Shown here: positions 16,529 to 46,488 of the stretch, one piece after another
Position numbering within the stretch: position 1 is the stretch's first letter
How the letters are laid out: the number at the start of each line of letters is the position of its first letter
DNA from: Candidatus Vecturithrix granuli
GTDB lineage: Bacteria; Moduliflexota; Moduliflexia; Moduliflexales; Moduliflexaceae
Direction of reading: 5' to 3'
Length of the DNA: 64,000 nt
Assembly (NCBI GenBank): GCA_000739535.1
Contig: DF820470.1
Coordinates: forward strand, 14,582 to 78,581
The notes under the pieces: generated by a model
What the model was told of the DNA's origin: nothing
Databases searched by the model: none
The model's input: only the letters and a program-made list of their open reading frames with translations
Position numbers and translations under genes: made by a program

Positions 16529-16542
16529 AAGGAGTTGGCCAG

Positions 16543-21716: not shown

Positions 21717-22326
21717 AAAGATCTCAGCCAACGGATTAACATTATACTGTTTACTATCGCAGGCAAAATCGCTCAACGAAAGAAACCTTGCGGATTTGCC
21801 CTCCGCCGATGCGCTAATTACTGTGATTGATGAACACCTTAAAAAAGATGCATTCTTCGTGGCTTACATGGATTATCGCGTCATCATCGGCAGATATACC
21901 AACAAGATGTTTGAGTTTTATCCGCTCACAAACGGAGAACAGATTACGCCGAAATACCTGCAAAAGCTGCGTATCTTCAACCAGAATGAAGAACTCCTAT
22001 TCTGGCGTTCCGGGCAAATGCTCAAAGGCCGGCATCGCAAAGACGGCGAAGGAGAAGAAATGCAGGTGATCGAAGCGCATCAGGTGCTCTTTGGCACGAA
22101 AAAAGGCAAACACAGCAACGAAACGTTTACCGAAATAACAGAAGATCGGGGTACATCGCTGATTTTACCGTTTACAGGTTTTGCACTGAATGACGCAACC
22201 CAACGGATTTTTCTCAAGACGCACAATTACATTGGCTACAATGCCGTTCATCAAGCGACGTATGTGGATTGCCGGTTTGTCGGATTTGCTGAGAAACAGG
22301 GAGATCATCACCAGAATTTGCTGTAA
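21709..22326 (+). CDS. csx19: CRISPR-associated protein Csx19
   Basis: This 205-aa protein matches Csx19 (type III-D signature): FFVAYMDYRVIIGRYTNK, LQKLRIFNQNEELLFWRSG, HQVLFGTKK, EDRGTSLILPF and near the end YVDCRFVGF. In III-Dv complexes Csx19 is a structural subunit sitting near Cas10 and the crRNA tag. An AGGAGG precedes the start. It ends 230 bp before the last cas7 gene, the gap being filled with a repeat block that interrupts what would otherwise be a continuous run of overlapping genes. Confidence 0.85.
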   Translation: MREKISANGLTLYCLLSQAKSLNERNLADLPSADALITVIDEHLKKDAFFVAYMDYRVIIGRYTNKMFEFYPLTNGEQITPKYLQKLRIFNQNEELLFWRSGQMLKGRHRKDGEGEEMQVIEAHQVLFGTKKGKHSNETFTEITEDRGTSLILPFTGFALNDATQRIFLKTHNYIGYNAVHQATYVDCRFVGFAEKQGDHHQNLL

Positions 22327-22555: not shown

Positions 22556-24595
22556 ATGGAAAAAGCTAAACTCATCATCAAAACAACTAAAAAAGGGAAA
22601 CATATCGCGGAACTGCTCTTTCTCGATACCAATAAAACCATGCCGTTTCCGCAATTTACCCCGCAAAATGCTTCTATGAACGGACAGGAAGTTGAGGTTC
22701 AACGGGAACAGGGGAAGATTTCAAAGGTTCAAACTGAAGGGAAGGTGATTTATGCAATGACAGTTTCGCCTCCGTCTCCATCTCGCAGGCCTCCCAGCGA
22801 TGACCGCCGACCTTCCTTTTCGGCTCCGCGCCGGACAGATGCACCGCGAACATCACGCTATCAGACTGCCAGGCCGGGCCAGCAGATCAGCAACGTCCGT
22901 TCTCCTGCCCACGCGCCCTATAATTTCATTCCGCTCAATGAAAAAATCATTGCAGCCGAAAAAATTCCAGGACAGGATTTTCCTTTGAATGTGTATCATC
23001 AAACCCGGCATACGGGATGGATTGACCTTGAGATTGAGACTCAAACCCCATTGTATATCCGCGACGCCTTAACGATGGAAGAGAGCAATTCCGACAGGGT
23101 GAATCCCGATTTCTTTTCGCCTAACGGTCAGCCGCAAATTCCAGGCAGTTCGCTGCGCGGCATGGTTCGCATGCTGGTAGAAATCGTCAGTTTCGGCAAA
23201 TTCGGCGCAGCGGATCGAGAGAAACGCTTCTATTTCCGAGGATTGGCAGATAAGAGCAATCTGCGCCAGGACTATCAGGAACGCATGAGTTCTTTCGACC
23301 GCAAAAGCCGCCGGGCCATTTACAAAATGTCCGCCGGAGTCCTTCGCAAAAAGGGACGATTTGATTATGAAATCGTACCGTCAGAGAAATTCTGGCAAAT
23401 CGCCAAGCCAAAAGCGCAAGGCATTGTCAAACAACTCAAGGATCAACGCTACGGAGAATTTAAGTTCTATGAAACCGGCGAGGGCTATTTAGTGGTCTCA
23501 GGCAACATGCAAAACAAGAAAAAAGACTGGATGATTGCGTTCCCATCGTCTGGCGCCAAAGCGTTTCCGATCCACGAAGATGATATAAAAGACTACAAAG
23601 ATGACGCCACGCGCGCGGATACGGTTCCGAATCTGGTCGAACTTGCCAATCGGAAACAATACAGCAAAGGCGTGCCCTGCTTTTACGTCAAATGGCAGGA
23701 TCGTTTCGGCCGCTCGCGCGTATCCTTCGGCCATACGGCCATGTTCCGTTTAGCGTATGAGAGAACGGTTGGCGAGCATCTTCCGGATGCGCATAACGAT
23801 GATGCCGCAATAGATATTGCCGAAGCGATATTCGGCAATGAGAAGACCTTTGCCGGACGCGTCTTCTTCGAGGACGCCAGACTGAATTTCGAGCAAACAG
23901 ACGTGCTGATGGGAGAAGCAACCCCCAAAATCCTCTCGTCTCCGAAACCCACAACGTTTCAGCACTATCTGACGCAACACCGCGATGACATCCGCCAATT
24001 GAGCCATTATAACACCAACGCCCTGATCCGAGGCAACAAACTCTACTGGCACAAATCCGGCGATAACTGGCAGGAGACTGACGAGGCCGCTATCACGCAA
24101 CACCAAACTCAATATACCAAAATTAATCCGGTCAAGCCACAGACCAAATTTACCGGACGCATCCGCTTCGAAAATCTTTCCGATGTTGAACTTGGTGCGT
24201 TGCTGTTCAGCCTCGATCTTCCGGAAGGCTGTTGTCATAAACTTGGTATGGGCAAACCGTTGGGTTTAGGCTCGGTCAAAATCATCCCTAAACTCTTTCT
24301 TTCAGATCGCAAACAGCGCTATTCCGATTTCCTGGCGGAATTCGACCTTCAGGAATCTCAACAACAGATTCCCAAATTCAAACAAAAATTCGAACTCCAC
24401 ATTTGCGAAGCGTTAAGAGAACAGAACGTTCATACCTTGTGGGATGTGAAACGGCTCAAAGAACTCAGAACCATGCTTGATTTTGAGAAAGGCGTCGAAC
24501 TTGAGAAGCAGGAGAAAATTCGATATATGCAGATCACTCCTCAAAATGAGTTCAAAGATCGTCCGGTGCTGCCGATGCCGACAATAATGGTTTAG
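22556..24595 (+). CDS. Long Cas7-like RAMP protein (Cas7 with insertion)
   Basis: This 679-aa protein has an N-terminal small beta domain (~1-70: AKLIIKTTKKGKHIAELLFL; SMNGQEVEVQREQGKISKV), a disordered Pro/Arg linker (~75-115), then a RAMP domain with GWIDLEIETQTPLYIRDALT, QIPGSSLRGMVRMLVEIVSF and a distal glycine loop LGMGKPLGLGSVKI near 562. A long insert lies between. This architecture matches the Cas7-insertion subunit of III-Dv. With csx10 and Cas7-2x it gives four Cas7 units in total. The start is uncertain because the repeat block abuts it; ATG 22556 is the first in frame. Confidence 0.86.
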   Translation: MEKAKLIIKTTKKGKHIAELLFLDTNKTMPFPQFTPQNASMNGQEVEVQREQGKISKVQTEGKVIYAMTVSPPSPSRRPPSDDRRPSFSAPRRTDAPRTSRYQTARPGQQISNVRSPAHAPYNFIPLNEKIIAAEKIPGQDFPLNVYHQTRHTGWIDLEIETQTPLYIRDALTMEESNSDRVNPDFFSPNGQPQIPGSSLRGMVRMLVEIVSFGKFGAADREKRFYFRGLADKSNLRQDYQERMSSFDRKSRRAIYKMSAGVLRKKGRFDYEIVPSEKFWQIAKPKAQGIVKQLKDQRYGEFKFYETGEGYLVVSGNMQNKKKDWMIAFPSSGAKAFPIHEDDIKDYKDDATRADTVPNLVELANRKQYSKGVPCFYVKWQDRFGRSRVSFGHTAMFRLAYERTVGEHLPDAHNDDAAIDIAEAIFGNEKTFAGRVFFEDARLNFEQTDVLMGEATPKILSSPKPTTFQHYLTQHRDDIRQLSHYNTNALIRGNKLYWHKSGDNWQETDEAAITQHQTQYTKINPVKPQTKFTGRIRFENLSDVELGALLFSLDLPEGCCHKLGMGKPLGLGSVKIIPKLFLSDRKQRYSDFLAEFDLQESQQQIPKFKQKFELHICEALREQNVHTLWDVKRLKELRTMLDFEKGVELEKQEKIRYMQITPQNEFKDRPVLPMPTIMV

Positions 24596-24596
24596 A

Positions 24597-24776
24597 GGAA
24601 GAAACGGACAACAACGGATGGGGGGAATGAACGGATGGAGAGAGACAACAGCGGATGAGAGAAATCACCGGATGGAGAGAGACAACAGCGGATTAAGGGA
24701 ATAAACTGATGAAAAAGGACGACACCGGATAAGATAATCCGCAGATTCCCAGAATCCGCTGTTGTCCTTCTTCCTA
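24597..24776. repeat. GACAACAGCGGAT hairpin repeat upstream of GxxExxY
   Basis: Repeated GACAACAGCGGAT units alternate with GGGAATGAACGGATG and AATCACCGGATG. They end in AATCCGCAGATTCCCAGAAT and CCGCTGTTGTC, which pair back on the GACAACAGCGGATTAAGGGAA part. This is the upstream flank of the GxxExxY gene and belongs to the same family as 22,333-22,553. Confidence 0.88.
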
Positions 24777-26004: not shown

Positions 26005-26018
26005 AAAGGAACAAATCA

Positions 26019-26757: not shown

Positions 26758-26871
26758 CTGGCGATCAATCGCCAGTCTCAAAGCGAAAGGACGCTGAAGC
26801 GCCCTGCGAACTTGATCAGCGGGCTTGAGCCTGCTTCAGCTTTGAGACCGGCCATTTATGGCTGGGCGAAC
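26758..26871 (+). repeat. 114-nt coding palindrome, copy A (at broken cas1 edge)
   Basis: It begins CTGGCGATCAATCGCCAGTC and ends GCCATTTATGGCTGGGCGAA C. Internal arms pair (CAAAGCGAAAGGACGCTGAA against TTCAGC...TTTGAG). It is the same length (114 nt) as copy B at 52,886-52,999, with about ten visible base differences. In the cas1 frame it reads GDQSPVSKRKDAEAPCELDQ, then RA, a TGA stop, then ACFSFETGHLWLGE. Copy B has the same frame but TCA at the stop position. Confidence 0.92.
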
Positions 26872-27533
26872 TTGTCCGCAAAGCCCGCAAGAAAGAGCAG
26901 CCGACACTGAAAAAGGCGATTGACCGCATCAAAGCGGCCGAACGCAGCGCCAAAGCGGCGACCACGCTCGATACGGTGCGCGGTCATGAAGGCGAAGGCT
27001 TGGCTGCCTATTTTTCCGTGTTGAACGAACTCCTGACATCCTCCGGAAAAACACAGGATGGCTTTACCTTTGAAAAACGGGTGCGCCGTCCGCCTAAAGA
27101 CCCGATTAACGCCCTGCTCAGTTTCGGTTATACCTTGCTGACTAACGACCTGATGACGGCTGTCAATATTGTCGGGTTCGATCCCTACATCGGCTATCTG
27201 CACGCGGAAAAATACGGACGCCCTGCGTTAGCTCTGGATTTGATGGAAGAATTCCGGCCCCTGATTGTTGACGCCATGGTGCTGGCCTGCGTGAATAAGA
27301 GAATCCTGACCAGGGCACACTTCATCGCCACCGAAGCCGAAACGTACCGGCTGACCGACGATGGCCGGCGTATTTTTCTGGAACAATATGAAGTGCGCCG
27401 CAAAACCGAATTTACCCATGCCCATCTGAATTGTAAAATCACGTATCAGCGCGCCTTCGAGGAACAGGCGCGCGTGTTAGGAAGAGTGCTGCAAGGCGAA
27501 TTGCCTGAATATTTGCCGGTTTTGATGAAGTAG
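26872..27533 (+). pseudogene. cas1: Cas1, N-terminally truncated
   Basis: The frame continuing from the palindrome encodes the C-terminal helical domain of Cas1. It has TLDTVRGHEGEGLAAYFSVL (metal-binding Glu), PINALLSFGYTLLTNDLMTA, GFDPYIGYLHAEKYGRPALA (His) and LDLMEEFRPLIVDAM (acidic ligand). All three integrase ligands are present, but the N-terminal beta-domain (roughly the first 120 residues of a ~330-aa protein) is absent and is replaced by the dispersed element with an in-frame TGA. The first internal start is GTG/ATG near 26976, which would give 185 aa. This cannot build the normal Cas1 dimer, so I call it inactive. A reverse-transcriptase fusion upstream cannot be excluded as its original form. 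Confidence 0.88.
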
Positions 27534-27881: not shown

Positions 27882-28274
27882 ATGTACATCGTCATCTCCT
27901 TTGAAAATGTAGCGCGAAACTCTAGTTTCGCGCATTGTTGACAGCCGCGAAACTGGAGTTTCGCGCTACATCTCATTTTCATGATGACGGGTGAGCCGGA
28001 GGCTCATGATAGCTCCTATGATATTAAGAACGACCAGCGCCGCACCAAAATTCACGATTTGCTCAAGAATTACGGTGAACGCATTCAATACAGCGTGTTC
28101 GAATGCGAGCTGAACCGTAAAGAGTACCAGCAATTGCGCGACGCCTTAGACCCATTGATTGATGTGGAAGAGACCGACAGCGTCCGCTTTTATCGTTTGT
28201 GCCGGGAATGCCGGAGCAAGCTCGAACACGTGGGCGGACGCAGCGCCAGAGACAACACGGCGATTATCATTTAA
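27882..28274 (+). pseudogene. cas2: Cas2 interrupted by a palindromic insertion
   Basis: ATG at 27882 begins MYIVIS, the first strand of Cas2. The frame resumes at 28,014 with SYDIKNDQRRTKIHDLLKNY, then GERIQYSVFECELNRKEYQQ and SVRFYRLCRECRSKLEHVGG, a complete Cas2 body including the catalytic Asp region. Between them lie 117 bp (39 codons) with an in-frame TGA after SFAHC. CTCCT flanks the insert on both sides (27,896-27,900 and 28,013-28,017), suggesting a 5-bp target duplication. Re-initiation at ATG 27981 would replace the first beta strand with foreign sequence, so function is doubtful. Confidence 0.88.
27901..28017. mobile_element. Composite palindromic element inserted in cas2 (copy 2)
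   Basis: It contains the double palindrome (27,907-27,971: GCGCGAAACTCTAGTTTCGC and CCGCGAAACTGGAGTTTCGC) in the opposite orientation to the other copies. It continues with TCATTTTCATGATGACGGGT and GAGCCGGAGGCTCATGATAG. The latter part is the reverse complement of sequence that precedes copy 4 at 54,503-54,538, so the moving unit is the double palindrome plus this third hairpin. Flanking CTCCT repeats support recent insertion. Confidence 0.8.
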
Positions 28275-28957
28275 GGAACGACAAAGCAGCATTAGACATG
28301 ATCGAAAATAGAACACTAATGGAACTGATTGAACTGATCTCCACTGATTTATCGAGAAGCGTGACGTGTGCTCCATGCTGTTCTTATGAGCATGAACCGT
28401 GCCCTGAATTCATCGTCATATCAGCGAGCATCAGCCCAGGCAGTTCCATCAGCCTTCTATTTCCGATCACCTCTATTGAATCCCGGCAAGATTTTCCGGG
28501 AACGATCAAAAAAAATCCAAAAACACAAGATGAGCAAAGATTTTCTTGACAAAATATCATTGTTGAGCGATATAAAATACACAGTGTAACGATGAAAAAC
28601 GGTGAGATTGTGAAAAAGTTACACGAAGCTGTGAATACAGGGTATTCGAGGTTGTATCCTTGTATGCGAAATCTCTAAACCCTGGAAACAGTATGAGTTA
28701 CAAGATTTTTCCGACAGGTGGGGGGTCTTCTAATTCACTTTTTCACAATGTGCCTCTAACTGTTTATTTTATAAGCACTTACGATGAATTTCATAAAAAG
28801 AGGTTGTCGGAAACCTGTAACCTTTGCAATCATAACAAGTTAGGTGATTTTCAATGACACGAAAAATGAAAAAACGACAGAATTTTTGCTCCAAAATCGG
28901 CACCTGTCGGAAATGGGGGTCTAAGTTATTGAATTTAGATGGGTTGCAGAGGGGTGA
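28275..28957 (+). promoter_or_regulatory. CRISPR leader region
   Basis: This 683-bp, AT-rich stretch lies between cas2 and the first repeat and has no convincing gene. It holds a perfect 13-bp inverted pair, TTTCCGACAGGTG (28,708-28,720) and CACCTGTCGGAAA (28,901-28,913), plus near-repeats of GGGGGTCTTCTAA and GGGGGTCTAAGTT beside each arm. The last 45 bp before the first repeat are the expected site for integration signals. Leader assignment rests on position, strand of the cas genes and repeat orientation. Confidence 0.7.
28546..28576 (+). promoter_or_regulatory. Candidate CRISPR array promoter
   Basis: TTGACA (28546-28551) and TATAAA (28571-28576) are separated by 19 bp, or 17-18 bp if the second hexamer is read as GATATA/ATATAA. 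It points into the array and lies ~380 bp before the first repeat. A plausible sigma-70 promoter for the pre-crRNA, based on sequence only. Confidence 0.5.
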
Positions 28958-31900
28958 GTAGAAACGCGGAATAATCCCTGGAAGGGTTTGAAACTCTCTT
29001 TTTTTCATTGGCTGGCCTCCGCGGGGGTGAGTAGAAACGCGGAATAATCCCTGGAAGGGTTTGAAACCTCTAAGATGTCGGCAATCGCGGCCTGGATGCG
29101 ATCCGTAGAAACGCGGAATAATCCCTGGAAGGGTTTGAAACGATCCCGGCAGGACCCATTGGAAACTCGTGTCGTTCGTAGAAACGCGGAATAATCCCTG
29201 GAAGGGTTTGAAACAATACCACCTCACTGGCATCGTACAGGATCATCAGTTGTAGAAACGCGGAATAATCCCTGGAAGGGTTTGAAACAAAAGGGTCGAC
29301 CGCATAAACCAGGAACAGTCCAATCGGTAGAAACGCGGAATAATCCCTGGAAGGGTTTGAAACGCTTGGTTTCCATTCCAGAATGACACACGCTCCGCCA
29401 AGTAGAAACGCGGAATAATCCCTGGAAGGGTTTGAAACTCACGGCTTCGTTCCCGACGAGGTCAAAGTTGCACCCCGTAGAAACGCGGAATAATCCCTGG
29501 AAGGGTTTGAAACACGTAGAAGAGAGAAGGCGACAACAACAAGTCGTGGTTGTGTAGAAACGCGGAATAATCCCTGGAAGGGTTTGAAACGGAGAAACGA
29601 AAAAGGAAGGGCCAAAAAGAGAAGAAGTAGAAACGCGGAATAATCCCTGGAAGGGTTTGAAACTGTACGTCGCGCTGAACGGATGGTGGTTCGTGCAATA
29701 CGTAGAAACGCGGAATAATCCCTGGAAGGGTTTGAAACCGGGTCGCTGTAAAGTTGTGCAAACTTTTTCGTTTCGTAGAAACGCGGAATAATCCCTGGAA
29801 GGGTTTGAAACGTCCACGCCATCATCGTGATTCCAGGGATTTTTGCTGCGTAGAAACGCGGAATAATCCCTGGAAGGGTTTGAAACTTTACAAGGAACCT
29901 GATTGAGACGTCCGAGGCCAAAAAGTAGAAACGCGGAATAATCCCTGGAAGGGTTTGAAACTACTTCGTTCCCGCCTTCATCTGCCGTGCAGAGTCAGGT
30001 AGAAACGCGGAATAATCCCTGGAAGGGTTTGAAACTTTATACTGATTTTCAGCAGGCTTCCATAATGCTTCGAGTAGAAACGCGGAATAATCCCTGGAAG
30101 GGTTTGAAACCTTCTACATCAGTGAAAGATTCTTCCCCTGTCTCAAGGTAGAAACGCGGAATAATCCCTGGAAGGGTTTGAAACGGGTTAAATTGTAGTC
30201 GTCACGAATAAGCATACCGCGTAGAAACGCGGAATAATCCCTGGAAGGGTTTGAAACGAGTCAAGTGGATTAACCACCGTAACATCCTAAAAGAAGTAGA
30301 AACGCGGAATAATCCCTGGAAGGGTTTGAAACAACTAAATTGGTATAGGAGAGAGTAGAGGAACATGTGTAGAAACGCGGAATAATCCCTGGAAGGGTTT
30401 GAAACAATATAAAAATAACACACCTCATACTCTTCCTATACCGTAGAAACGCGGAATAATCCCTGGAAGGGTTTGAAACTACTCTTCCTATACCTTTGAA
30501 AAAAGGACCCTGCAGCGTAGAAACGCGGAATAATCCCTGGAAGGGTTTGAAACGACGCGGGGTATCATCGATATACCCGCATCTGGAAATAGTAGAAACG
30601 CGGAATAATCCCTGGAAGGGTTTGAAACGACAGATTCCGTTTATCGAAGCCGCCCTTTCTCGCCCCGTAGAAACGCGGAATAATCCCTGGAAGGGTTTGA
30701 AACAATTACGTTTGCTGATATGAATGATAGAACTTCTTACGTAGAAACGCGGAATAATCCCTGGAAGGGTTTGAAACAATAATCCGTAACGGGGCAGGTG
30801 CAAAATAAAAGCGAAGTAGAAACGCGGAATAATCCCTGGAAGGGTTTGAAACGCAACACAGCAATCTGTGTTGGATATGTTGATATACTGTAGAAACGCG
30901 GAATAATCCCTGGAAGGGTTTGAAACCATAGTGTTTTTCCTCCTGGAAAATGTTGGTGTTATGTGTAGAAACGCGGAATAATCCCTGGAAGGGTTTGAAA
31001 CTACATCTTTCTTATCTCTCTCTTAAACGCTAAGTCAGGTAGAAACGCGGAATAATCCCTGGAAGGGTTTGAAACATTTGTCGTCAGGTAGCACATAGAC
31101 GTCTACGGTTAATGTAGAAACGCGGAATAATCCCTGGAAGGGTTTGAAACTTACCCCTTGAGGATCGCCTTCTGGTGGATTCTTCCACCGTAGAAACGCG
31201 GAATAATCCCTGGAAGGGTTTGAAACACGAGTAAGCTGATTTACAGGGTTTTAATGAGGAGTGGTAGAAACGCGGAATAATCCCTGGAAGGGTTTGAAAC
31301 GCAATGTCGCCCTTCTCGGCCACGGTCAATTCGAAGTGTAGAAACGCGGAATAATCCCTGGAAGGGTTTGAAACTGACGGGACCTTTTCGAAGGTGCCCC
31401 GTTTCCCGAAAAGTAGAAACGCGGAATAATCCCTGGAAGGGTTTGAAACTGCCAGCCTAGCAGCGTAATAAATCAGCAATTTCATCGTAGAAACGCGGAA
31501 TAATCCCTGGAAGGGTTTGAAACATGAAGGTATGATTGATATCACCTGTACACTCACCGCAGAGTAGAAACGCGGAATAATCCCTGGAAGGGTTTGAAAC
31601 TGAACATCTTTCAGCATCATTTCAATTTCACGTTTTTGTAGAAACGCGGAATAATCCCTGGAAGGGTTTGAAACAATCTGAACTTTCAGAAGGTTCATGG
31701 CAGAGCTGGGGTCGTAGAAACGCGGAATAATCCCTGGAAGGGTTTGAAACGCGATGTCAATAAGCTCGGATGCAAAAGCTCCTGTCTGGGTAGAAACGCG
31801 GAATAATCCCTGGAAGGGTTTGAAACTGTATGTGAATACTGTCAGGGTGGAGGACAATTCAATCAGTAGAAACGCGGAATAATCCCTGGAAGGGTTTGAA

Positions 31901-34900
31901 ACCAAAGCACTAATGCGATGCCAGCGACAATCCCAGCTATGTAGAAACGCGGAATAATCCCTGGAAGGGTTTGAAACAGTCAGAGATAGTGCGAATAACT
32001 TCTTTACAGTGCCGAGTAGAAACGCGGAATAATCCCTGGAAGGGTTTGAAACTCGAGTCCGCACGACGGATACCGTAGATTAGATATTCGTAGAAACGCG
32101 GAATAATCCCTGGAAGGGTTTGAAACAGGCTCTTATTGTACTCCACGCTCCCATGATAGGAGCAAGTAGAAACGCGGAATAATCCCTGGAAGGGTTTGAA
32201 ACGGTCTCTAGCGTGGCAGGCGGTTGAGCGGCCACGGTTTGTAGAAACGCGGAATAATCCCTGGAAGGGTTTGAAACATATATGATGTGTTAGTTTCTGG
32301 GTTTTATCGTTAACGTAGAAACGCGGAATAATCCCTGGAAGGGTTTGAAACCGACTGGTCAATCAACGTCATTCAAAAGAAACCATGGGAGTAGAAACGC
32401 GGAATAATCCCTGGAAGGGTTTGAAACATATGTAGCATAGATGGGTTTTTTCTCCGTTATTGGCGTAGAAACGCGGAATAATCCCTGGAAGGGTTTGAAA
32501 CAAGAGGTTATCGTGAAAATTGCGATTTGGATTACCCAGGTAGAAACGCGGAATAATCCCTGGAAGGGTTTGAAACTTTTATGTGATATGTGCAGCCCAA
32601 CGCATGAAGCATCCGTAGAAACGCGGAATAATCCCTGGAAGGGTTTGAAACCCATTGCTGACGAAGCGACGAATGCGGTGATATGTGCAGTAGAAACGCG
32701 GAATAATCCCTGGAAGGGTTTGAAACCATATACTCTCCTCTGTGAAATTTTTCACAATCGTTTAGTAGAAACGCGGAATAATCCCTGGAAGGGTTTGAAA
32801 CAACTTTCAAGCAGGCTTGATACGCCTCATCGCACGTTTGTAGAAACGCGGAATAATCCCTGGAAGGGTTTGAAACGAAAATCTCATGCAAAAAGAAAAG
32901 TTTTTGCATTCTTCGTAGAAACGCGGAATAATCCCTGGAAGGGTTTGAAACGTAGATCGCCATTTTTGCCATAGCGTCTCCAGTTGGCAGTAGAAACGCG
33001 GAATAATCCCTGGAAGGGTTTGAAACGTGGATTTTGAAGATTATGAAATTCCTGTGAAATCAGGTAGAAACGCGGAATAATCCCTGGAAGGGTTTGAAAC
33101 TTTTCATAGTTGTTCTCCTTGTTGTGTTTGTGATATTGTAGAAACGCGGAATAATCCCTGGAAGGGTTTGAAACGGACATTGTAAACTCTGCCACCTGGA
33201 ACCTGTTTAAATGTAGAAACGCGGAATAATCCCTGGAAGGGTTTGAAACAAAAGGGTTTGGGATCATCAATCGTTACCCAATAAAGTAGAAACGCGGAAT
33301 AATCCCTGGAAGGGTTTGAAACAGGTCCGCGCCTGATAACAACGCGCGAATGCGAATGGCGTAGAAACGCGGAATAATCCCTGGAAGGGTTTGAAACTAT
33401 CCTGAGATTATCACCATCCTGGAATGACCTAGTGGGTAGAAACGCGGAATAATCCCTGGAAGGGTTTGAAACTTCAATCACGTGGAAGTAATCAGCTAAA
33501 GCTATAGGATGTAGAAACGCGGAATAATCCCTGGAAGGGTTTGAAACGTCCTGATTGTATACTCATGTTCTTTTTCATTTAGGGGGTAGAAACGCGGAAT
33601 AATCCCTGGAAGGGTTTGAAACTATCAATTCTTTTCTCACGAAAGGAGGTGAGAAAAAGTAGAAACGCGGAATAATCCCTGGAAGGGTTTGAAACTAAGC
33701 CTCACATGGTTTTTTTGGAGAGCCTGGCTATGAGTAGAAACGCGGAATAATCCCTGGAAGGGTTTGAAACAGCGGAGTACATTGCGCGTTACCCAAAATA
33801 CCGGTCAGTAGAAACGCGGAATAATCCCTGGAAGGGTTTGAAACTCGCCGGTAAGAGTTTTTCCGGTCAGACCGATAAAAAGTAGAAACGCGGAATAATC
33901 CCTGGAAGGGTTTGAAACTTTCCATCGCCGAGCCCAGCGTCATAGCCAGGCTCTCGTAGAAACGCGGAATAATCCCTGGAAGGGTTTGAAACAATCAACG
34001 GTGAAGTCCAGCTTTTGGCCCACGGGCAGTAGAAACGCGGAATAATCCCTGGAAGGGTTTGAAACTGTAATCTCCGTCAGACAAACAATCTTTGAAGCCG
34101 CCGGTAGAAACGCGGAATAATCCCTGGAAGGGTTTGAAACGCTCCATGTGTGAACATTTCCCATCTTTCGGGGAATCCGTAGAAACGCGGAATAATCCCT
34201 GGAAGGGTTTGAAACGAATCACGTAAGCACCGATTGAATCCAAGTCAACTTTGTAGAAACGCGGAATAATCCCTGGAAGGGTTTGAAACGGCGTCGCGAT
34301 CGCGAACAAAAACACTCATAAGATAGGTAGAAACGCGGAATAATCCCTGGAAGGGTTTGAAACCTGAATCTCGTCCGGAGAGGAGCAAGTATCTCCGGGA
34401 GGTAGAAACGCGGAATAATCCCTGGAAGGGTTTGAAACATGTCCTTCTTCTGTTTTGTGCAAGTGTCAACTAAACCGTAGAAACGCGGAATAATCCCTGG
34501 AAGGGTTTGAAACGCAAAGCTGCGGGCGTTAATGCGCTGCTGGAGAATCTTGTAGAAACGCGGAATAATCCCTGGAAGGGTTTGAAACCGTTGGTGTTGG
34601 CGTCGGTGTCGCCGCAGGCGGCTGACTGTAGAAACGCGGAATAATCCCTGGAAGGGTTTGAAACGATAATCATCTGCTGGATGGAATTCAAACACCGGAA
34701 TGGTAGAAACGCGGAATAATCCCTGGAAGGGTTTGAAACCCTATCAGAATCCTTTTTAAGAATCGTGTTAACATGATGTAGAAACGCGGAATAATCCCTG
34801 GAAGGGTTTGAAACGACATTTCCTTCCACTGCCTCGATGACCCATTGTCTCGTAGAAACGCGGAATAATCCCTGGAAGGGTTTGAAACAGGACGATCTTC

Positions 34901-37900
34901 AGCTTCAACTACATAAATGGTACGGGTAGAAACGCGGAATAATCCCTGGAAGGGTTTGAAACGTGTTTCCAGGGCATCCTGTCAAAACTACTGCAGCCAC
35001 GTAGAAACGCGGAATAATCCCTGGAAGGGTTTGAAACGTGGTATTCCACGTTGTGTTATAATCAACGACCACGGTAGAAACGCGGAATAATCCCTGGAAG
35101 GGTTTGAAACTTGTGAAAAGAGCTAGCGGTGCTAGCTCTTGATATGAGTAGAAACGCGGAATAATCCCTGGAAGGGTTTGAAACTTATCCTCGTGTTTCT
35201 CGTTTCTGATTCCAAGAAAAATGTAGAAACGCGGAATAATCCCTGGAAGGGTTTGAAACTCGACGACCTGAATGATCTGCCGGGCGGACGGAGCGCGTAG
35301 AAACGCGGAATAATCCCTGGAAGGGTTTGAAACCTACGAATCTTGCTGGATAATGCTGTCTCGCCCCTTGTAGAAACGCGGAATAATCCCTGGAAGGGTT
35401 TGAAACACTCATCAATGCACAATTCAATGTGAACCAACGGGTGTAGTAGAAACGCGGAATAATCCCTGGAAGGGTTTGAAACAGCGATTTCCATTCCGGC
35501 GACGGGAGGAACATCGTCACGTAGAAACGCGGAATAATCCCTGGAAGGGTTTGAAACAATAATATCTATGATGAAAAAAATCAAAAAATATCGCGTAGAA
35601 ACGCGGAATAATCCCTGGAAGGGTTTGAAACAGTTCCCGACAAACAATGCGAACCAGATTTCCTTTGAAGTAGAAACGCGGAATAATCCCTGGAAGGGTT
35701 TGAAACTTCTTCATAACAATTCTCCTACAAAAGGATAGATAGATGTAGAAACGCGGAATAATCCCTGGAAGGGTTTGAAACCGTTGGACATCGGTTCGCG
35801 CTCTCGCCGGCCGCTTGGGTAGAAACGCGGAATAATCCCTGGAAGGGTTTGAAACGAACCATACGTCATCCTCTACGGATTTGTCAACGTATGGTAGAAA
35901 CGCGGAATAATCCCTGGAAGGGTTTGAAACCTTCGTAGCTGCACCACTGCAAGCCATACGGTCCCCAGTAGAAACGCGGAATAATCCCTGGAAGGGTTTG
36001 AAACACTAATATCCCCCAAAGGAAGGGATACAGGACAGTTGCGTAGAAACGCGGAATAATCCCTGGAAGGGTTTGAAACTATTCAGTAAGTCAACAAACC
36101 GTTTATCCAGTGCGTCGTAGAAACGCGGAATAATCCCTGGAAGGGTTTGAAACTATTGGCAATTGCATACTTGTTAAAATCTTCCTGGGTCGTAGAAACG
36201 CGGAATAATCCCTGGAAGGGTTTGAAACCATTTGTATCAACTGCCGCACGATGCCGAGAAGCGTAGAAACGCGGAATAATCCCTGGAAGGGTTTGAAACA
36301 CCGATATATGGTCGTGTGTCTCGTGGTGCTGCTGGTCGTAGAAACGCGGAATAATCCCTGGAAGGGTTTGAAACACTCTTGACGCTGGCCTACGGCACAC
36401 GCGAAACGATGGTAGAAACGCGGAATAATCCCTGGAAGGGTTTGAAACTCTCCGACTCACAGCCTGGCGGAATTAGAAAACTATGTAGAAACGCGGAATA
36501 ATCCCTGGAAGGGTTTGAAACAGCGAACCAATAGGTTGGAATAATGGCACATACGACGTAGAAACGCGGAATAATCCCTGGAAGGGTTTGAAACCGCGTA
36601 CTCTGCCGGTCCCTCCTCACTATGTTTTAAGTAGAAACGCGGAATAATCCCTGGAAGGGTTTGAAACTAGCTTCAAAATCAAATCCTCAGGGCTTTCCCC
36701 TACTGGGTAGAAACGCGGAATAATCCCTGGAAGGGTTTGAAACCTATATCTTGCATGAACTTCCATTTTAGCCTCCTGTAGGTAGAAACGCGGAATAATC
36801 CCTGGAAGGGTTTGAAACTATTGTTATCATATACCCTCCGGATCTGCTTCTAAACTGTAGAAACGCGGAATAATCCCTGGAAGGGTTTGAAACATTTCTA
36901 CTTCAGAATTTGAGGACATACTCTTTAACTTTGTAGAAACGCGGAATAATCCCTGGAAGGGTTTGAAACTTCTTCAACGCTCTCCTGGCTGACCAGCTCT
37001 AAGAAGTAGAAACGCGGAATAATCCCTGGAAGGGTTTGAAACCAAATTGGTTCAACCGTCCCAGGCGGTAATGCGGCCTGTAGAAACGCGGAATAATCCC
37101 TGGAAGGGTTTGAAACTATCAGCTTCCGCATACGCGCCATCTGGTTGGGTTTTTGTAGAAACGCGGAATAATCCCTGGAAGGGTTTGAAACTTATCCCGT
37201 CTATACTGTCGGGAGGGTTGATTTCTCGTAGAAACGCGGAATAATCCCTGGAAGGGTTTGAAACTGGCACAAACTCCGTTGAAAAATTTCTTGCACGACG
37301 TAGAAACGCGGAATAATCCCTGGAAGGGTTTGAAACTTTAATGTATGTACGCGATATTGTCCGTTCAGATATTGTAGAAACGCGGAATAATCCCTGGAAG
37401 GGTTTGAAACGATGATAGATAATAACCCAAGCGTCTTGGTCGTCCAAAGTAGAAACGCGGAATAATCCCTGGAAGGGTTTGAAACGGATACCCAACAATG
37501 CCGACAAGATAGGGGCGGTAACGTAGAAACGCGGAATAATCCCTGGAAGGGTTTGAAACACATTGTAAGCAGAAACCCCATGAAATTCCCTCGTTTGTAG
37601 AAACGCGGAATAATCCCTGGAAGGGTTTGAAACACAACTCAACAGAAGACACACCATCGCACACAGCCGAGTAGAAACGCGGAATAATCCCTGGAAGGGT
37701 TTGAAACGATTACATAGGTTGCGGCTTCGTCAATGGTTTCATCGGTAGAAACGCGGAATAATCCCTGGAAGGGTTTGAAACGTTTTCTGTTCTTCGCTTC
37801 GGCGTGCGCCCGTCGTGGCGTAGAAACGCGGAATAATCCCTGGAAGGGTTTGAAACAACGGCAGCTATGTGCCAACACGCCTGACCGGGTCGTAGAAACG

Positions 37901-40900
37901 CGGAATAATCCCTGGAAGGGTTTGAAACTCTGGAAAATTCGCTCGTCATCGCGCAGGGGTCGCTGGTAGAAACGCGGAATAATCCCTGGAAGGGTTTGAA
38001 ACTACGCCACGAATTTTTGTTTGTAGCGACGAAAGGGTAGAAACGCGGAATAATCCCTGGAAGGGTTTGAAACGACAATAAGCACAAAATGAAGTTTTCA
38101 GCGGTGCGCAAGGTAGAAACGCGGAATAATCCCTGGAAGGGTTTGAAACGAGTCAATGGGGCGCAACCAGTGCCACAACTCCACTCGTAGAAACGCGGAA
38201 TAATCCCTGGAAGGGTTTGAAACTTAGCCAATATGACCAGTCTCAAGATGTGCGGCGGCGGTAGAAACGCGGAATAATCCCTGGAAGGGTTTGAAACACT
38301 GTCCATAGGTGCGTTTCGTCTGTCGTGCGCGCGTAGAAACGCGGAATAATCCCTGGAAGGGTTTGAAACCCGGCCTGGTTACTTGCCTCCAAGCAGGAGT
38401 TTTTGTAGAAACGCGGAATAATCCCTGGAAGGGTTTGAAACTGTATAACCAGCCTGATGAAACTGGAAACCATACAATCGTAGAAACGCGGAATAATCCC
38501 TGGAAGGGTTTGAAACGAATTTATGATGGTGGTTAGGAGGATATTATGGATTGTAGAAACGCGGAATAATCCCTGGAAGGGTTTGAAACGATCCTGTGTC
38601 GCCATATCATGCTCTATCCCTAAAAGTAGAAACGCGGAATAATCCCTGGAAGGGTTTGAAACGGCTTCAACCATTTTGGCATATCCCTGACACACCGCCG
38701 TAGAAACGCGGAATAATCCCTGGAAGGGTTTGAAACTGTTCCTGCTGAACCACCGCCAAAGTCGAAGGAAAAGGTGTAGAAACGCGGAATAATCCCTGGA
38801 AGGGTTTGAAACTACCCATATTTCAATCTGATCATACGGAATCACAATCCGTAGAAACGCGGAATAATCCCTGGAAGGGTTTGAAACCCACACGCGCTTC
38901 GATAAGTTCACTATACTACTTGTGGTAGAAACGCGGAATAATCCCTGGAAGGGTTTGAAACACGTTGCTATTTTTTCTTGATCTGTCATCTTCTCCCCTG
39001 TAGAAACGCGGAATAATCCCTGGAAGGGTTTGAAACTCATATTAGGGAGTTGAATTGATTGAGAAATGTATTTTGTAGAAACGCGGAATAATCCCTGGAA
39101 GGGTTTGAAACAACCCTGTTGAACATACGCTTTCCAAGCTGAATATTTTGTAGAAACGCGGAATAATCCCTGGAAGGGTTTGAAACGAAAAAGAGGGTGA
39201 AACTAACGGCGAGTATATACCATGTAGAAACGCGGAATAATCCCTGGAAGGGTTTGAAACACTTTTGGGGATAGGAGTCCATCGCAGATCGTCGAGTAGA
39301 AACGCGGAATAATCCCTGGAAGGGTTTGAAACTCAAGAAGAGCTTGAATTGATGCTGCAGTCAATTCCATGTAGAAACGCGGAATAATCCCTGGAAGGGT
39401 TTGAAACATGATTACCCTTGTCGAAACGATTATCAGTTCGGCGTAGTAGAAACGCGGAATAATCCCTGGAAGGGTTTGAAACGCTTGTTCCGATTTGCCT
39501 GGCAGCATGGCCTGTCTCACGTAGAAACGCGGAATAATCCCTGGAAGGGTTTGAAACCAGGAAACCATTGCCACCCCCGCTGCTCGCACACAGGTAGAAA
39601 CGCGGAATAATCCCTGGAAGGGTTTGAAACGTACTGCCCGTATAGTCGCTGTCCACGAGCACGATTTGTAGAAACGCGGAATAATCCCTGGAAGGGTTTG
39701 AAACCTGGTGGGTCTGGTTGACTGCTCGGCCGCATTTGACGTAGAAACGCGGAATAATCCCTGGAAGGGTTTGAAACCCTAACAGTGACAAGGGAACAAT
39801 CATATTTCTGAGTTCGTAGAAACGCGGAATAATCCCTGGAAGGGTTTGAAACAAGGGGAAAATATGAAATATGAACGAATTTTCATTCTGTAGAAACGCG
39901 GAATAATCCCTGGAAGGGTTTGAAACAAGCAGATCATGCTCGCCTTTGTGGACGCGCATGGCGTAGAAACGCGGAATAATCCCTGGAAGGGTTTGAAACA
40001 GTATCATTAGTCAGCGATGACACTCCCAATATTGCTGGTAGAAACGCGGAATAATCCCTGGAAGGGTTTGAAACCGCACGGGACTGCAAGTTGCCGTGCC
40101 GGAAGGCTATGAAGTAGAAACGCGGAATAATCCCTGGAAGGGTTTGAAACCAGCGACATCCCATCCTCCCGACGCGCCACCACCGTAGAAACGCGGAATA
40201 ATCCCTGGAAGGGTTTGAAACTTTTCGTAATTTTAATTGTCCGCCTTTTGCCCATTCCGTAGAAACGCGGAATAATCCCTGGAAGGGTTTGAAACCCGAT
40301 TTAACGCCGGAAGAAGTGCGACTCGCCCGCATGTAGAAACGCGGAATAATCCCTGGAAGGGTTTGAAACTGGAAGCCTGGACGCTCTGTCAGGTGGAAAC
40401 GAAATCGGTAGAAACGCGGAATAATCCCTGGAAGGGTTTGAAACGTACCTGTGGTTTTGAGATTGATGCAGACCATAACGGGTAGAAACGCGGAATAATC
40501 CCTGGAAGGGTTTGAAACGTGCGAGTGAATGCAATTTTAGGGAAGAAAGCGAAATGTAGAAACGCGGAATAATCCCTGGAAGGGTTTGAAACAGTTGTAG
40601 GGCGTGCCAATCACATCTCGAAAGAATGTAGAAACGCGGAATAATCCCTGGAAGGGTTTGAAACTTTGGAAGTGATGAGCGAGAAGGACTATCTGCGGTT
40701 TGTAGAAACGCGGAATAATCCCTGGAAGGGTTTGAAACGTTTCGTTTGTTTCTCCCAAAATAAGATGATCTAATCCGTAGAAACGCGGAATAATCCCTGG
40801 AAGGGTTTGAAACACTCCATGAGCGGATTCCATCTGAGATATCGCGAATAGTAGAAACGCGGAATAATCCCTGGAAGGGTTTGAAACCCTAAAGCATTAA

Positions 40901-43900
40901 CTCTATAACCATTTTCTGTCTTTCTGTAGAAACGCGGAATAATCCCTGGAAGGGTTTGAAACCGCCCGCGCCTGGGAATGACTGGTCATCGATGTTGAGT
41001 AGAAACGCGGAATAATCCCTGGAAGGGTTTGAAACAAACTCTTTCTCAATGCACAGAAATTGACGATTCAGTAGAAACGCGGAATAATCCCTGGAAGGGT
41101 TTGAAACGAAACGAAATCGCTGTGTGCGTCTCAGTATGCCACTGTGTAGAAACGCGGAATAATCCCTGGAAGGGTTTGAAACACCGCCTCGCATTCTTGC
41201 AGGGCGGCGAGAAATGCGTAGAAACGCGGAATAATCCCTGGAAGGGTTTGAAACCCGATGAACCCCCATCTGAAGAGACAACGCCATGCGAGTAGAAACG
41301 CGGAATAATCCCTGGAAGGGTTTGAAACTCTGTAATCGGCAGCGTCGCGGTAATCTCCTGGACAGTAGAAACGCGGAATAATCCCTGGAAGGGTTTGAAA
41401 CATTCGTCCCATCCAAACTATACGCTCCGCCAAGTTTCGTAGAAACGCGGAATAATCCCTGGAAGGGTTTGAAACATGTTGATGAATCACAGTGTATCCA
41501 CATATTCTGTGGTAGAAACGCGGAATAATCCCTGGAAGGGTTTGAAACAATGTCACCGCCCCGCCGAATCCCATCACGCGAATGTGTAGAAACGCGGAAT
41601 AATCCCTGGAAGGGTTTGAAACAAAAAATAAGTAGGCGCACAGTAAGCCTAAGCCGCCGTAGAAACGCGGAATAATCCCTGGAAGGGTTTGAAACACGAC
41701 CGCCATGATCTGCGATCCCCATCCAAGCATGACGTAGAAACGCGGAATAATCCCTGGAAGGGTTTGAAACGTCGTCCGCCCACGGGCACAAACAAGTCCG
41801 TTGTGTAGAAACGCGGAATAATCCCTGGAAGGGTTTGAAACTGACAAGCTTGTTCGTGGGGCGGGTATTTTCAACACGGTAGAAACGCGGAATAATCCCT
41901 GGAAGGGTTTGAAACTGGCAAACTCCGGGTGTTTCGCTTTATAGCCGGTATAGTAGAAACGCGGAATAATCCCTGGAAGGGTTTGAAACACTAAAAAACA
42001 AATGGGGATAATCAGGCACCGATAGTAGAAACGCGGAATAATCCCTGGAAGGGTTTGAAACACGAATTATGTTCGAAGGCAGTCCAGCCGAAATTCACGT
42101 AGAAACGCGGAATAATCCCTGGAAGGGTTTGAAACAGCAGATTATGTGAATATCCCAGAGTTCCCGTCTTTGGTAGAAACGCGGAATAATCCCTGGAAGG
42201 GTTTGAAACCGCATGGCTCAAGCCAAGTGATCCGTCCGGGAATTGTAGAAACGCGGAATAATCCCTGGAAGGGTTTGAAACCATCCAGATCGTCGCCAAA
42301 CGTTTTACTGACGGGAAGTAGAAACGCGGAATAATCCCTGGAAGGGTTTGAAACCACAGCATAGACAAGGGAAAAGCCGAAATTGCGGCGCGTAGAAACG
42401 CGGAATAATCCCTGGAAGGGTTTGAAACACATAATGAGAATAGGCATCCATGATGCAGATCGAGTAGAAACGCGGAATAATCCCTGGAAGGGTTTGAAAC
42501 GAGAATCTGCTCACCCGTACCGCCGACGCGCCTGTCTGTAGAAACGCGGAATAATCCCTGGAAGGGTTTGAAACCTGTGCCAATGGTCGCGGCGGCGGCA
42601 AAGGCAGTCAGGTAGAAACGCGGAATAATCCCTGGAAGGGTTTGAAACAAGATCAATTCCCAATCCGCGTCTGTGCGATCCAGGTAGAAACGCGGAATAA
42701 TCCCTGGAAGGGTTTGAAACACATCTACGGCGACAGGAGACGTAGGCGTTCCGGCACGGTAGAAACGCGGAATAATCCCTGGAAGGGTTTGAAACTAAAC
42801 ACGGGATAGAACGAAAACCATTCTGCATGTAAGGTAGAAACGCGGAATAATCCCTGGAAGGGTTTGAAACCATTAACGTTGCACACATTAGAACAGTGGG
42901 CAACGGGTAGAAACGCGGAATAATCCCTGGAAGGGTTTGAAACAATCCTGTTTTCCTTCCTCGGTAAGTTCCCACTTACCGTAGAAACGCGGAATAATCC
43001 CTGGAAGGGTTTGAAACCTTGAAAGACGTTTGGCTGGACACCAGACGTCTTGAGCCGTAGAAACGCGGAATAATCCCTGGAAGGGTTTGAAACAAAAACG
43101 AAAGTCCTAGAACTCCCGTCAGTAAACTGTTGTAGAAACGCGGAATAATCCCTGGAAGGGTTTGAAACTTGATTTTCCAGGACTGCATTGACGACTTTTT
43201 GAATCGTAGAAACGCGGAATAATCCCTGGAAGGGTTTGAAACCATTTCATTTTTTCCTCCAAAAAAATTTTATATTTAAAGTAGAAACGCGGAATAATCC
43301 CTGGAAGGGTTTGAAACTATCCCGCAGATATGCTATACTGCGGTTTCTGGATACGTAGAAACGCGGAATAATCCCTGGAAGGGTTTGAAACTATTGGTAA
43401 CTGCAAAAGCCGGAAATCCCGCTTGCCTGGGTAGAAACGCGGAATAATCCCTGGAAGGGTTTGAAACAATTCGCCGCATAACGTTTTGACACCGACTTCG
43501 CACCGTAGAAACGCGGAATAATCCCTGGAAGGGTTTGAAACCTTCTCAATGGCCGTCGCAGCCGGTATTGACCAGTGTTGTAGAAACGCGGAATAATCCC
43601 TGGAAGGGTTTGAAACAATGTATCGGCGACATTAGCGCTGTTATGTACTGTTACGTAGAAACGCGGAATAATCCCTGGAAGGGTTTGAAACTGGCAGGGT
43701 ACTTGCACATAAATAATCTGCGGCTGTGGTAGAAACGCGGAATAATCCCTGGAAGGGTTTGAAACGACTTTTTATTGCCGTCAACGTAGATCTGTTGGTC
43801 TGGTAGAAACGCGGAATAATCCCTGGAAGGGTTTGAAACACCAGATCGGCAGTTTGTAGGCCCATACAGGGATTTCGTAGAAACGCGGAATAATCCCTGG

Positions 43901-46305
43901 AAGGGTTTGAAACCTTTCCGTGCCCTCCATCTCAGCGGTTTTTACAACGTTCGTAGAAACGCGGAATAATCCCTGGAAGGGTTTGAAACCGGGATGTTAC
44001 CGGTACTCGTACAGTCCTCGCTGTTTGCGTAGAAACGCGGAATAATCCCTGGAAGGGTTTGAAACACTTAGCTCTGACGGGGTCCACTGTGACGAATGGG
44101 CAAGTAGAAACGCGGAATAATCCCTGGAAGGGTTTGAAACACGGTCATCCTCGTTTCCTACACCTTTTTGGGGATTCAGTAGAAACGCGGAATAATCCCT
44201 GGAAGGGTTTGAAACTTCTGTCATCGTTTGCCCATTGTTTCCCTTTTTCTCTTGTAGAAACGCGGAATAATCCCTGGAAGGGTTTGAAACGCTAGAGCTC
44301 TCGTCCAGGTAAAACCAGGGTAGAGATGTAGAAACGCGGAATAATCCCTGGAAGGGTTTGAAACAAAAACAACCACTTCCAACGAAAGGAGTACCAGTAA
44401 GTGTAGAAACGCGGAATAATCCCTGGAAGGGTTTGAAACTTGAAACACGAATCATGTTTCCTTCAATTTTCGCCTCCGTAGAAACGCGGAATAATCCCTG
44501 GAAGGGTTTGAAACTTCGCTTCTTCCGGTAGAATTGTCTGGATTATCAAATTGTAGAAACGCGGAATAATCCCTGGAAGGGTTTGAAACGTGTCAATACC
44601 TCGAATACGAACTTAATTTGCTTTTTGTAGAAACGCGGAATAATCCCTGGAAGGGTTTGAAACGCAAGTTGATCTGGCTATAAAAATTAGGGTCAGATTT
44701 CTGTAGAAACGCGGAATAATCCCTGGAAGGGTTTGAAACGCCGCTATTACTGTAATGAACCGGTGACCCGCTTTAGCGGTAGAAACGCGGAATAATCCCT
44801 GGAAGGGTTTGAAACAGTAGGGTTATGGCATTTCAATAGCAATGCCACGGACAGTAGAAACGCGGAATAATCCCTGGAAGGGTTTGAAACGATTAATTGT
44901 AACCACGATAAAATTTCCCAGGTGAGTAGAAACGCGGAATAATCCCTGGAAGGGTTTGAAACGAGAATCTCAACAGACCGAAGTTCCGCATCGAATCCCG
45001 TAGAAACGCGGAATAATCCCTGGAAGGGTTTGAAACCGAATCCAACGGGAACGTCCAGCCGTCCAATTTCCGCCGTAGAAACGCGGAATAATCCCTGGAA
45101 GGGTTTGAAACTTCCTACTCATCAGTAGGTGACGTTCAGGTCTCGAAGTAGAAACGCGGAATAATCCCTGGAAGGGTTTGAAACCCCTTCTCCATGTGTG
45201 CGGAGAGGATTCCGATTTCTTGTAGAAACGCGGAATAATCCCTGGAAGGGTTTGAAACCTCTACGATCTCCCTGTTTTCAATCCGCCTAATCATCCGTAG
45301 AAACGCGGAATAATCCCTGGAAGGGTTTGAAACCGGACGCCCTCAAGACGAAGTCCCACCTCACTTAGAGTAGAAACGCGGAATAATCCCTGGAAGGGTT
45401 TGAAACTCGATAGATTTTCTTGAATGCGAGTGAGCAATGCCGAGTAGAAACGCGGAATAATCCCTGGAAGGGTTTGAAACTATCTGAGGAGGCGATCAGC
45501 ATGAAACCGAAGCTTATCAGTAGAAACGCGGAATAATCCCTGGAAGGGTTTGAAACGTATCATCCGGCGCCGGTGCAGGCGCCTGAGCGGGAAGGTAGAA
45601 ACGCGGAATAATCCCTGGAAGGGTTTGAAACGATATCCTAACGCGTCCAGGCTGGAATTGTTTCGCGCCGTAGAAACGCGGAATAATCCCTGGAAGGGTT
45701 TGAAACGTATATTTCCGTTATATATACCTATCCCTACAGTCAAGTAGAAACGCGGAATAATCCCTGGAAGGGTTTGAAACATTCTACATTCCGGTATTTC
45801 GGAATGTAGAATTAAATCGTAGAAACGCGGAATAATCCCTGGAAGGGTTTGAAACGAAATTGCTCGGCATTCGGACGTTTAGCCCAACTCTCGGTAGAAA
45901 CGCGGAATAATCCCTGGAAGGGTTTGAAACATTCAGTAGATCAATAGCTTTACTCTCTAGGGCTGTTGGTAGAAACGCGGAATAATCCCTGGAAGGGTTT
46001 GAAACAAACGTATTTTATCCCCGAAAATTTTAATCTGGGGAGGGTAGAAACGCGGAATAATCCCTGGAAGGGTTTGAAACATCTATACCGCTTTCCCAAA
46101 ATGAACTTTAATCCGGCGTAGAAACGCGGAATAATCCCTGGAAGGGTTTGAAACAAGACAGATAGCATCGAACAACCCCGTCAGCAGGCGTGTAGAAACG
46201 CGGAATAATCCCTGGAAGGGTTTGAAACGTCTGCATAGACTTGCCAGAATGTACCCGTTTTAAAGTACGTAGAAACGCGGAATAATCCCTGGAAGGGTTT
46301 GAAAC
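28958..46305 (+). CRISPR. CRISPR array, 234 repeats / 233 spacers
   Basis: The 37-nt repeat starts GTAGAAACGCGGAATAATCC and ends CTGGAAGGGTTTGAAAC. Walking every repeat start by hand gives 234 copies spaced 71-77 bp (spacers 34-40 nt, mean about 37). No degenerate repeat was noticed, including the first and last. CCCT-GGA-AGGG can form a short hairpin, and the 3' end TTTGAAAC resembles the usual 8-nt crRNA 5' tag, so transcription should run left to right, away from the cas genes. The array is longer than the whole cas locus. All open frames inside it are repeat artefacts. The count may be off by one or two. Confidence 0.98.
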
Positions 46306-46488
46306 CAAGGGCTGGCACATTGTGGTGATGATCGGGGCAGGATGACCTGAGACGCTGTGGTGTGAGGAAATTCGTCCGAACGTTGAACTGACTCCGCTTT
46401 TGAGCCTGCTCATTCATCTCATGATTTTGATTGCCCGGAAGAATATTCAAGCGGCCAAACTTCAGGCCGATTTGACTATCAATGTTGC
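46306..46488. other. Spacer between the array end and the chemoreceptor gene
   Basis: No recognisable gene or trailer motif. A plus-strand frame at ~46,361-46,491 reads EEIRPNVELTPLLSLLIHLM, then ILIARKNIQAAKLQADLTIN; it has a stop just before it and no start, so it may be a short remnant of an unknown gene. Confidence 0.4.

What the first reader, a model, noticed from the sequence alone, without database searches (positions are those of the whole stretch)
28958..46305. Very large, uniform array: 234 repeats and 233 spacers
By hand count this is one of the larger arrays one meets in bacteria, 17.3 kb. I noticed no degenerate repeat anywhere, including the leader-distal end. Such uniformity suggests recent expansion, strong repeat homogenisation or selection, and is at odds with the broken local cas1/cas2.
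Basis: seen in the sequence. Interest (0 to 1): 0.7.

Follow-up and report, generated by a model that had tools for sequence, protein, structure and literature searches.

The report
Large ordinary CRISPR array, fed remotely
This is a real but ordinary bacterial immune-memory array of 234 identical repeats in Candidatus Vecturithrix granuli; its neighbouring memory-writing genes are broken, but a second intact locus with the same repeat and a very similar leader probably keeps writing to it, because the two arrays recorded the same invaders in the same order.

Summary
The count is right to the base: 234 exact copies of one 37-bp repeat and 233 different spacers of 34-40 bp at 28958-46305, with no mutated repeat. 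The interpretation needs correcting. The genome (matching Ca. Vecturithrix granuli UASB270 by exact size and N50, published with '5 CRISPR arrays, 550 repeats') carries the same repeat in a larger array on contig C3 (312 copies) beside a complete III-B system with intact Cas6, Cas4, Cas1 and Cas2, and a third array (I-D) of at least 389 perfect repeats. The window array, next to a III-D effector operon, is the smallest of the three. The broken local cas1/cas2 therefore pose no paradox: the C3 module very likely acts in trans. Support: conserved leader (91% over 250 bp), identical repeat, and five overlapping spacer pairs from shared invaders lying in the same order in both arrays (one-sided p = 1/120). 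Perfect uniformity is unremarkable: 11 of 28 related arrays are fully uniform and the median is 98.5% exact. Size is large but below the record (587 spacers). No target was found in phage or plasmid collections. A new member of a known kind; the parallel record in two arrays is the interesting part.

The parts
28958..46305 (+). CRISPR array: 234 identical 37-bp repeats, 233 distinct spacers
   Evidence: exact repeat scan
28707..28957 (+). leader, about 250 bp, 91% identical to the leader of the C3 array (96% in the last 50 bp); identity decays further upstream
   Evidence: a weak promoter-like site (TTCACA-17-TATTTT, 28742-28770) is present in both leaders
27882..28274 (+). damaged cas2: start codon region 27882-27899, then about 114 bp of insertion with a palindromic hairpin (arms 27907-27932 and 27946-27971), then the rest of the gene; an ATG at 27981 leaves an open frame lacking the first strand
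   Evidence: PF09827 positions 6-73
26829..27533 (+). cas1 remnant: C-terminal catalytic domain only, N-terminal domain missing
   Evidence: PF01867 positions 118-282 of 283; alignment with intact C3 and C4 Cas1
16525..18111 (+). Cas10 of a type III-D effector
   Evidence: Pfam PF22335, PADLOC Cas10d/Cas10
18071..18766 (+). Cas7-like RAMP (III-D)
18754..20310 (+). Csx10-like Cas5 of III-D
   Evidence: PADLOC Cas5_IIId
20313..21716 (+). double Cas7 (III-D)
   Evidence: PADLOC Cas7_IIId 1.8e-115
21709..22326 (+). Csx19 (III-D)
   Evidence: PADLOC Csx19 8.7e-38
22556..24595 (+). large Cas7 (III-D); the match begins at residue 109-112, so the true start is probably later than the ORF start
   Evidence: PADLOC Cas7_IIId 1.9e-168
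15239..16528 (+). CARF-PDDEXK nuclease (Card1/Can2-like), the likely cyclic-oligoadenylate-activated accessory
   Evidence: Pfam Card1 endonuclease and CARF; PADLOC CARF4-CARF_PDDEXK 3.6e-137
46306..46488 (.). leader-distal flank: begins straight after a perfect last repeat; carries a 48-codon orphan open frame; single copy in the genome

Best explanation
A genuine, large type III CRISPR array beside a III-D effector operon. Shown: array anatomy, leader conservation, damaged local cas1/cas2, no cas6 match among the neighbouring cas genes that were scanned, and a second locus (C3) with the identical repeat, a closely similar leader and intact Cas6, Cas4, Cas1 and Cas2. Inferred: the C3 Cas1-Cas2 complex recognises the shared leader and first repeat and inserts spacers into both arrays; the C3 Cas6 cuts the shared repeat in both transcripts; the crRNAs load into the III-D and III-B complexes. 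The repeats are uniform because each new repeat is copied from the leader-proximal one and the oldest copies are not old enough to have mutated.
For: Same exact repeat 546 times in the genome, all in C14 and C3. Leaders 91% identical over the last 250 bp, against 70% nucleotide identity of the matched cas1 segment. Intact Cas1, Cas2, Cas4 and Cas6 on C3. Five spacer pairs overlap only in part (16-31 nt) between the two arrays, so they are independent captures from the same invader sequences, and their order is identical: C14 15, 48, 49, 121, 188 against C3 7, 44, 47, 82, 85 (tau = 1, exact one-sided p = 1/120; at a looser cut, seven pairs, tau 0.81, p 0.011). Shuffled spacers give about 0-1 such pairs in the whole set, against 34 seen. 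The youngest pair (15/7) lies near both leaders, so both arrays were acquiring in the same recent period. C3 and C4 contigs have the genome's own composition (0.92-0.97, against 0.54 for an evident outlier contig). crRNA strands are biased antisense to coding sequence in both III-type arrays (139:94, p 0.004; 189:121, p 0.0001) and not clearly in the I-D array (208:179, p 0.16). A published survey finds that arrays with the same repeat acquire equally, whatever their distance from cas genes (PMC12814883).
Against: Only five C14-C3 pairs at the main threshold; C14-C4 and C3-C4 order is not significant alone, and with score-13 pairs included the combined test fails (p 0.24), although C14-C3 alone holds (p 0.025). 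The date of the cas1/cas2 damage is unknown, so older spacers may have been written by the then intact local proteins. The C4 Cas1-Cas2 was not excluded as the writer. No expression data. The antisense bias comes from a codon model trained on host genes (83% accurate on 37-mers). The genome is a short-read metagenome bin.
Confidence: 0.78

Rival explanations
1. Frozen archive: the array stopped growing when its own cas1 and cas2 broke and is now only a static memory still transcribed and used.
For: cas1 lacks the N-terminal domain and cas2 carries an insertion; no direct proof of growth after the damage.
Against: An intact module with identical repeat and conserved leader exists; spacer 15 shares an invader with C3 spacer 7, so recent entries look contemporaneous; the leader is still conserved.
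Confidence: 0.15
2. The truncated Cas1 and re-started Cas2 still work together and write to the array locally.
For: Both remnants keep open frames; the Cas1 remnant keeps the catalytic domain motifs.
Against: The N-terminal domain of Cas1 and the first strand of Cas2, both structural parts of the integrase (general knowledge), are missing; intact paralogues make this unnecessary.
Confidence: 0.05
3. The uniformity reflects recent block duplication of repeat-spacer units or an assembly artefact.
For: Short-read, mate-pair scaffolded metagenome assembly at 38-fold coverage (PMC4312070).
Against: All 233 spacers differ and no pair inside the array shares more than 16 nt; no N inside the array; the same uniformity occurs in arrays of isolates.
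Confidence: 0.02
4. Active homogenisation (recombination between repeats or between the C3 and C14 arrays) keeps all repeats identical.
For: The repeat is identical between loci although leaders differ by 9% and the matched cas1 segment by 30%.
Against: No spacer is shared as a whole between C3 and C14, as exchange would produce; simple copying plus selection on a repeat read by a shared Cas6 and Cas1 explains identity; uniform arrays are common.
Confidence: 0.08

Closest known systems
Arrays of the published Ca. Vecturithrix granuli UASB270 genome (PMC4312070)
   Different: No per-array description in the parts read; I count 935 repeats (exact or one mismatch) in three array loci (234 + 312 + 389), more than its total.
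Haliangium ochraceum DSM 14365 arrays (587, 189 and 36 spacers; PMC8047081, PMC7145573)
   Same: Very long arrays in a bacterium.
   Different: Its longest array is 2.5 times longer than this one; the three-array total here (930 sequenced spacers) exceeds its 812.
Cyanobacterial arrays with related Cas1 (about 50% identity), repeats ending GGGATTGAAAC (loci L020-L098)
   Same: 37-bp repeats, similar 3' half, often over 110 largely uniform units within 10 kb of cas1.
   Different: Different repeat sequences and phylum; intact adjacent cas1.
Arrays with identical repeats distant from cas genes (survey PMC12814883)
   Same: Same repeat, comparable lengths, acquisition in trans.
   Different: Here the order of shared invaders across two arrays is itself preserved and visible; I found no earlier statement of that for this genome.

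Membership tests
CRISPR array | regular direct repeats of 23-50 bp separated by unique spacers of similar length | tested here: met
CRISPR array | leader at the end where new units enter | tested here: met
   conserved leader upstream of first repeat at two loci
CRISPR array | adjacent or genome-encoded cas genes | tested here: met
   III-D locally, III-B and I-D elsewhere
CRISPR array | spacers match mobile elements | tested here: inconclusive
   no phage or plasmid match; four exact IMG/VR scans gave only chance-level 18-nt hits
CRISPR array | transcribed and processed to crRNA | not testable with these tools
   no RNA data
Type III-D CRISPR-Cas | Cas10, Csx10-type Cas5, fused or multiple Cas7, Csx19 | tested here: met
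Type III-D CRISPR-Cas | own intact cas1-cas2 (not a required feature of type III) | tested here: not met
   both damaged
Array served in trans by the C3 module | identical repeat and conserved leader at a locus with intact Cas1-Cas2 | tested here: met
Array served in trans by the C3 module | integration by C3 Cas1-Cas2 at this leader | not testable with these tools
   needs an assay; indirect support from collinear shared invaders

The most novel reading that the evidence does not exclude
Two giant arrays in one cell have been written in parallel by one adaptation complex through nearly their whole history, so that they form independent, alignable records of the same series of invaders; the genome carries at least 930 sequenced spacers, possibly among the largest memories known in a bacterium.
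Probability: 0.45. Interest if true: 0.5.

Novelty: new member of a known kind. Interest (0 to 1): 0.38.

Why it matters
The array itself is ordinary. What matters is that two arrays with the same repeat in one genome hold partly overlapping spacers from the same invaders in the same order. That gives a sequence-only test of whether a distant array without its own working cas1-cas2 keeps acquiring, and a way to date spacers in one array against another. It also shows that damaged local adaptation genes should not be read as a dead array before the whole genome is checked.

Tried and rejected
Record-size claim: rejected (587 spacers published). Assembly duplication: rejected, all spacers distinct. 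Truncation of the distal end by a repeated insertion element: the 185 bp after the last repeat are single copy in the genome and the 47-aa peptide there has no other match, so not shown. Spacer targets: none in phages or plasmids by megablast or blastn; IMG/VR exact scans of four doubly captured segments gave 0, 0, 0 and 2 hits, the two being 18-22 nt in unrelated proteins and expected about once by chance (my estimate). Self-targeting: best matches have scores of 15-18 in roughly 385 kb of the genome, chance level; the rest of the genome was not tested. Repeat in relatives: absent in 96 genomes, only 3 of them from the same order. Repeat hairpin: weak, not better than shuffles. Mis-binning of C3/C4: not supported by composition. 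One genome search used a needlessly extended pattern and added nothing.

Full report
Observation. The repeat GTAGAAACGCGGAATAATCCCTGGAAGGGTTTGAAAC occurs 234 times without a single mismatch between 28958 and 46305; the 233 spacers are all different and 34-40 bp long.

Whose genome. The window is G000:C14:14582-78581 of an 8,384,694-base genome. Size and N50 (597,372) are those printed for UASB270, Candidatus Vecturithrix granuli, phylum Moduliflexota/KSB3 (PMC4312070; lineage). That paper already lists five CRISPR arrays with 550 repeats for it, from a short-read assembly scaffolded with mate pairs at 38-fold coverage. So the array is in print in aggregate. My count of repeats is higher (below); I cannot say why.

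Not alone. A search of the whole genome finds 546 copies of the repeat with up to three mismatches, all in two arrays: 234 here and 312 on contig C3 (29053-52962), of which 311 are exact and only the last carries one change. One slot of the C3 array holds a 784-bp insertion containing Ns. A third array on C4 (12091-41595) has at least 389 perfect copies of a different repeat (GTGAAAACCCTAATAAAACCCTGGAAGGGATTAAAAC) plus a run of Ns. Sequenced spacers: 233 + 310 + 387 = 930. The largest single array in a database of complete genomes has 587 spacers (H. ochraceum; PMC7145573), with two further arrays of 189 and 36 (PMC8047081), 812 in all. C3 and C4 match the genome's tetranucleotide profile (0.92-0.97) and share interspersed 20-mers with other contigs, whereas contig C1 does not (0.54), so they are not obvious mis-binned contigs.

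The cas genes. Left of the array, 15239-24595, lies a type III-D effector operon (Cas10, Csx10-type Cas5, several Cas7, Csx19) with a CARF-PDDEXK accessory nuclease. I found no cas6 match among the cas genes scanned there. The local cas1 (26829-27533) keeps only the C-terminal domain; cas2 has an insertion of about 114 bp with a palindromic hairpin just after its start. C3 carries a complete III-B set (Cmr1-6), Cas6, Cas4, intact Cas1 and Cas2. C4 carries a I-D set with its own Cas6, Cas4, Cas1 and Cas2.

Why the broken local genes are no paradox. The window and C3 leaders are 91% identical over the last 250 bp and 96% over the last 50, while the matched cas1 segment is 70% identical in nucleotides. 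With the repeat identical, the C3 Cas1-Cas2 has the recognition signals to use both arrays. A survey of thousands of genomes reports that arrays sharing a repeat acquire equally whatever their distance from cas genes, and reviews acquisition in trans (PMC12814883).

Parallel record. All-against-all comparison of the 930 spacers gives 34 pairs at score 15 or more, against 0-1 in shuffled sets. Five link the window array to C3: 15/7, 48/44, 49/47, 121/82, 188/85. They overlap only in part or lie on opposite strands, so they are separate captures from the same invader sequence, not exchanged units. Their order is the same in both arrays (tau 1; one-sided exact p = 1/120; seven pairs at score 14, tau 0.81, p 0.011; nine at score 13, tau 0.61, p 0.025). 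Pairs within one array lie close together (median 8% of array length against 30% expected), as expected of captures from one infection. Links to C4 are too few to order. Combined over all array pairs the test is significant at scores 14-17 (p 0.003-0.03) and lost at 13 (p 0.24), where chance pairs are more frequent. I take this as moderate evidence that both arrays were written at the same times. It does not date the damage to the local cas1.

Strand of the crRNAs. With a codon model (83% correct on held-out 37-mers), spacers of the window array read antisense to coding sequence 139:94 (p 0.004) and those of C3 189:121 (p 0.0001); the I-D array is 208:179 (p 0.16). Ribosome-site plus ATG motifs agree for the window array (15 antisense, 3 sense) but only weakly for C3 (17 against 12). 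Type III interference needs crRNAs antisense to transcripts (stated in PMC5576922), so the bias fits use by type III complexes, through selection or acquisition.

Uniformity. In 28 arrays of 30 or more units near the most similar Cas1 genes, nearly all cyanobacterial, the median fraction of exact repeats is 98.5% and 11 are wholly uniform, including several arrays of more than 110 units within the fetched flank. Zero changes in 8,658 repeat bases bounds the mean age only to about 0.35-3.5 million generations at assumed rates of 1e-9 to 1e-10 per base. Neither homogenisation nor a burst is required. The perfect last repeat may mean the old end was lost, but the flank after it is single copy and shows no identifiable element.

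Targets. No match to 50,697 phage or 72,556 plasmid records (the last 1.35 kb was not run against plasmids in the sensitive mode). Four doubly captured segments were sought in IMG/VR; only an 18-mer hit, twice, about what chance predicts. The simplest reading is that the invaders of this reactor organism are not in these collections.

Verdict. Shown: anatomy, uniformity, damage, shared repeat and conserved leader, intact module elsewhere. Supported but not proven: writing in trans and in parallel. Inferred: processing by the C3 Cas6 and loading into III-D and III-B complexes.

Noticed in passing
G000:C4:12091-41595 (L015, L100, L101): Third array, type I-D, at least 389 repeats all exact, 387 sequenced spacers; larger than the window array. 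In same-strand overlapping pairs, 6 of 11 recoverable 5' flanks of C4 spacers end in GTN, as expected of a type I-D motif.
   Followed up: partly
G000:C3:29053-52962 (L012-L014): Second array with the same repeat, 312 copies; a 784-bp insertion with Ns sits in one spacer slot near the distal end.
   Followed up: partly
L012:17097-18554: Group II intron reverse transcriptase/maturase gene between cas2 and the leader of the C3 array.
   Followed up: no
C3 spacer 63 and C4 spacer 54; C4 spacers 30 and 344; C14 spacer 104 and C4 spacer 137: Spacers with the same start in different arrays, even with different repeats, suggesting a common selection of protospacer ends across the systems.
   Followed up: no
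window 27900-28013; also C3:56380-56440, window 2396 and 54589: Interspersed palindromic element (TGTAGCGCGAAACT...AGTTTCGCGCTACA) that interrupts cas2.
   Followed up: partly
window 20835, 22347-22430, 24647-24760, 25597-25840, 26682: Many copies of a short repeated element (core AACAGCGGAT) between and inside the III-D genes and the decayed stretch before cas1.
   Followed up: no
window 26016-26609: WD40-repeat gene fragment, apparently decayed, upstream of the cas1 remnant.
   Followed up: no
G000:C1 (L116): The sampled 20 kb of contig C1 has a clearly foreign tetranucleotide profile (0.54 against 0.95 or more) and shares no 20-mers with the rest: probable contaminant in the bin.
   Followed up: partly
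window 1-67, minus strand: 5' end of a 16S rRNA gene at the window edge.
   Followed up: no
PMC4312070 Table 1: The published total of 550 repeats for this genome is far below the 935 counted here; 546 alone belong to the shared repeat.
   Followed up: no
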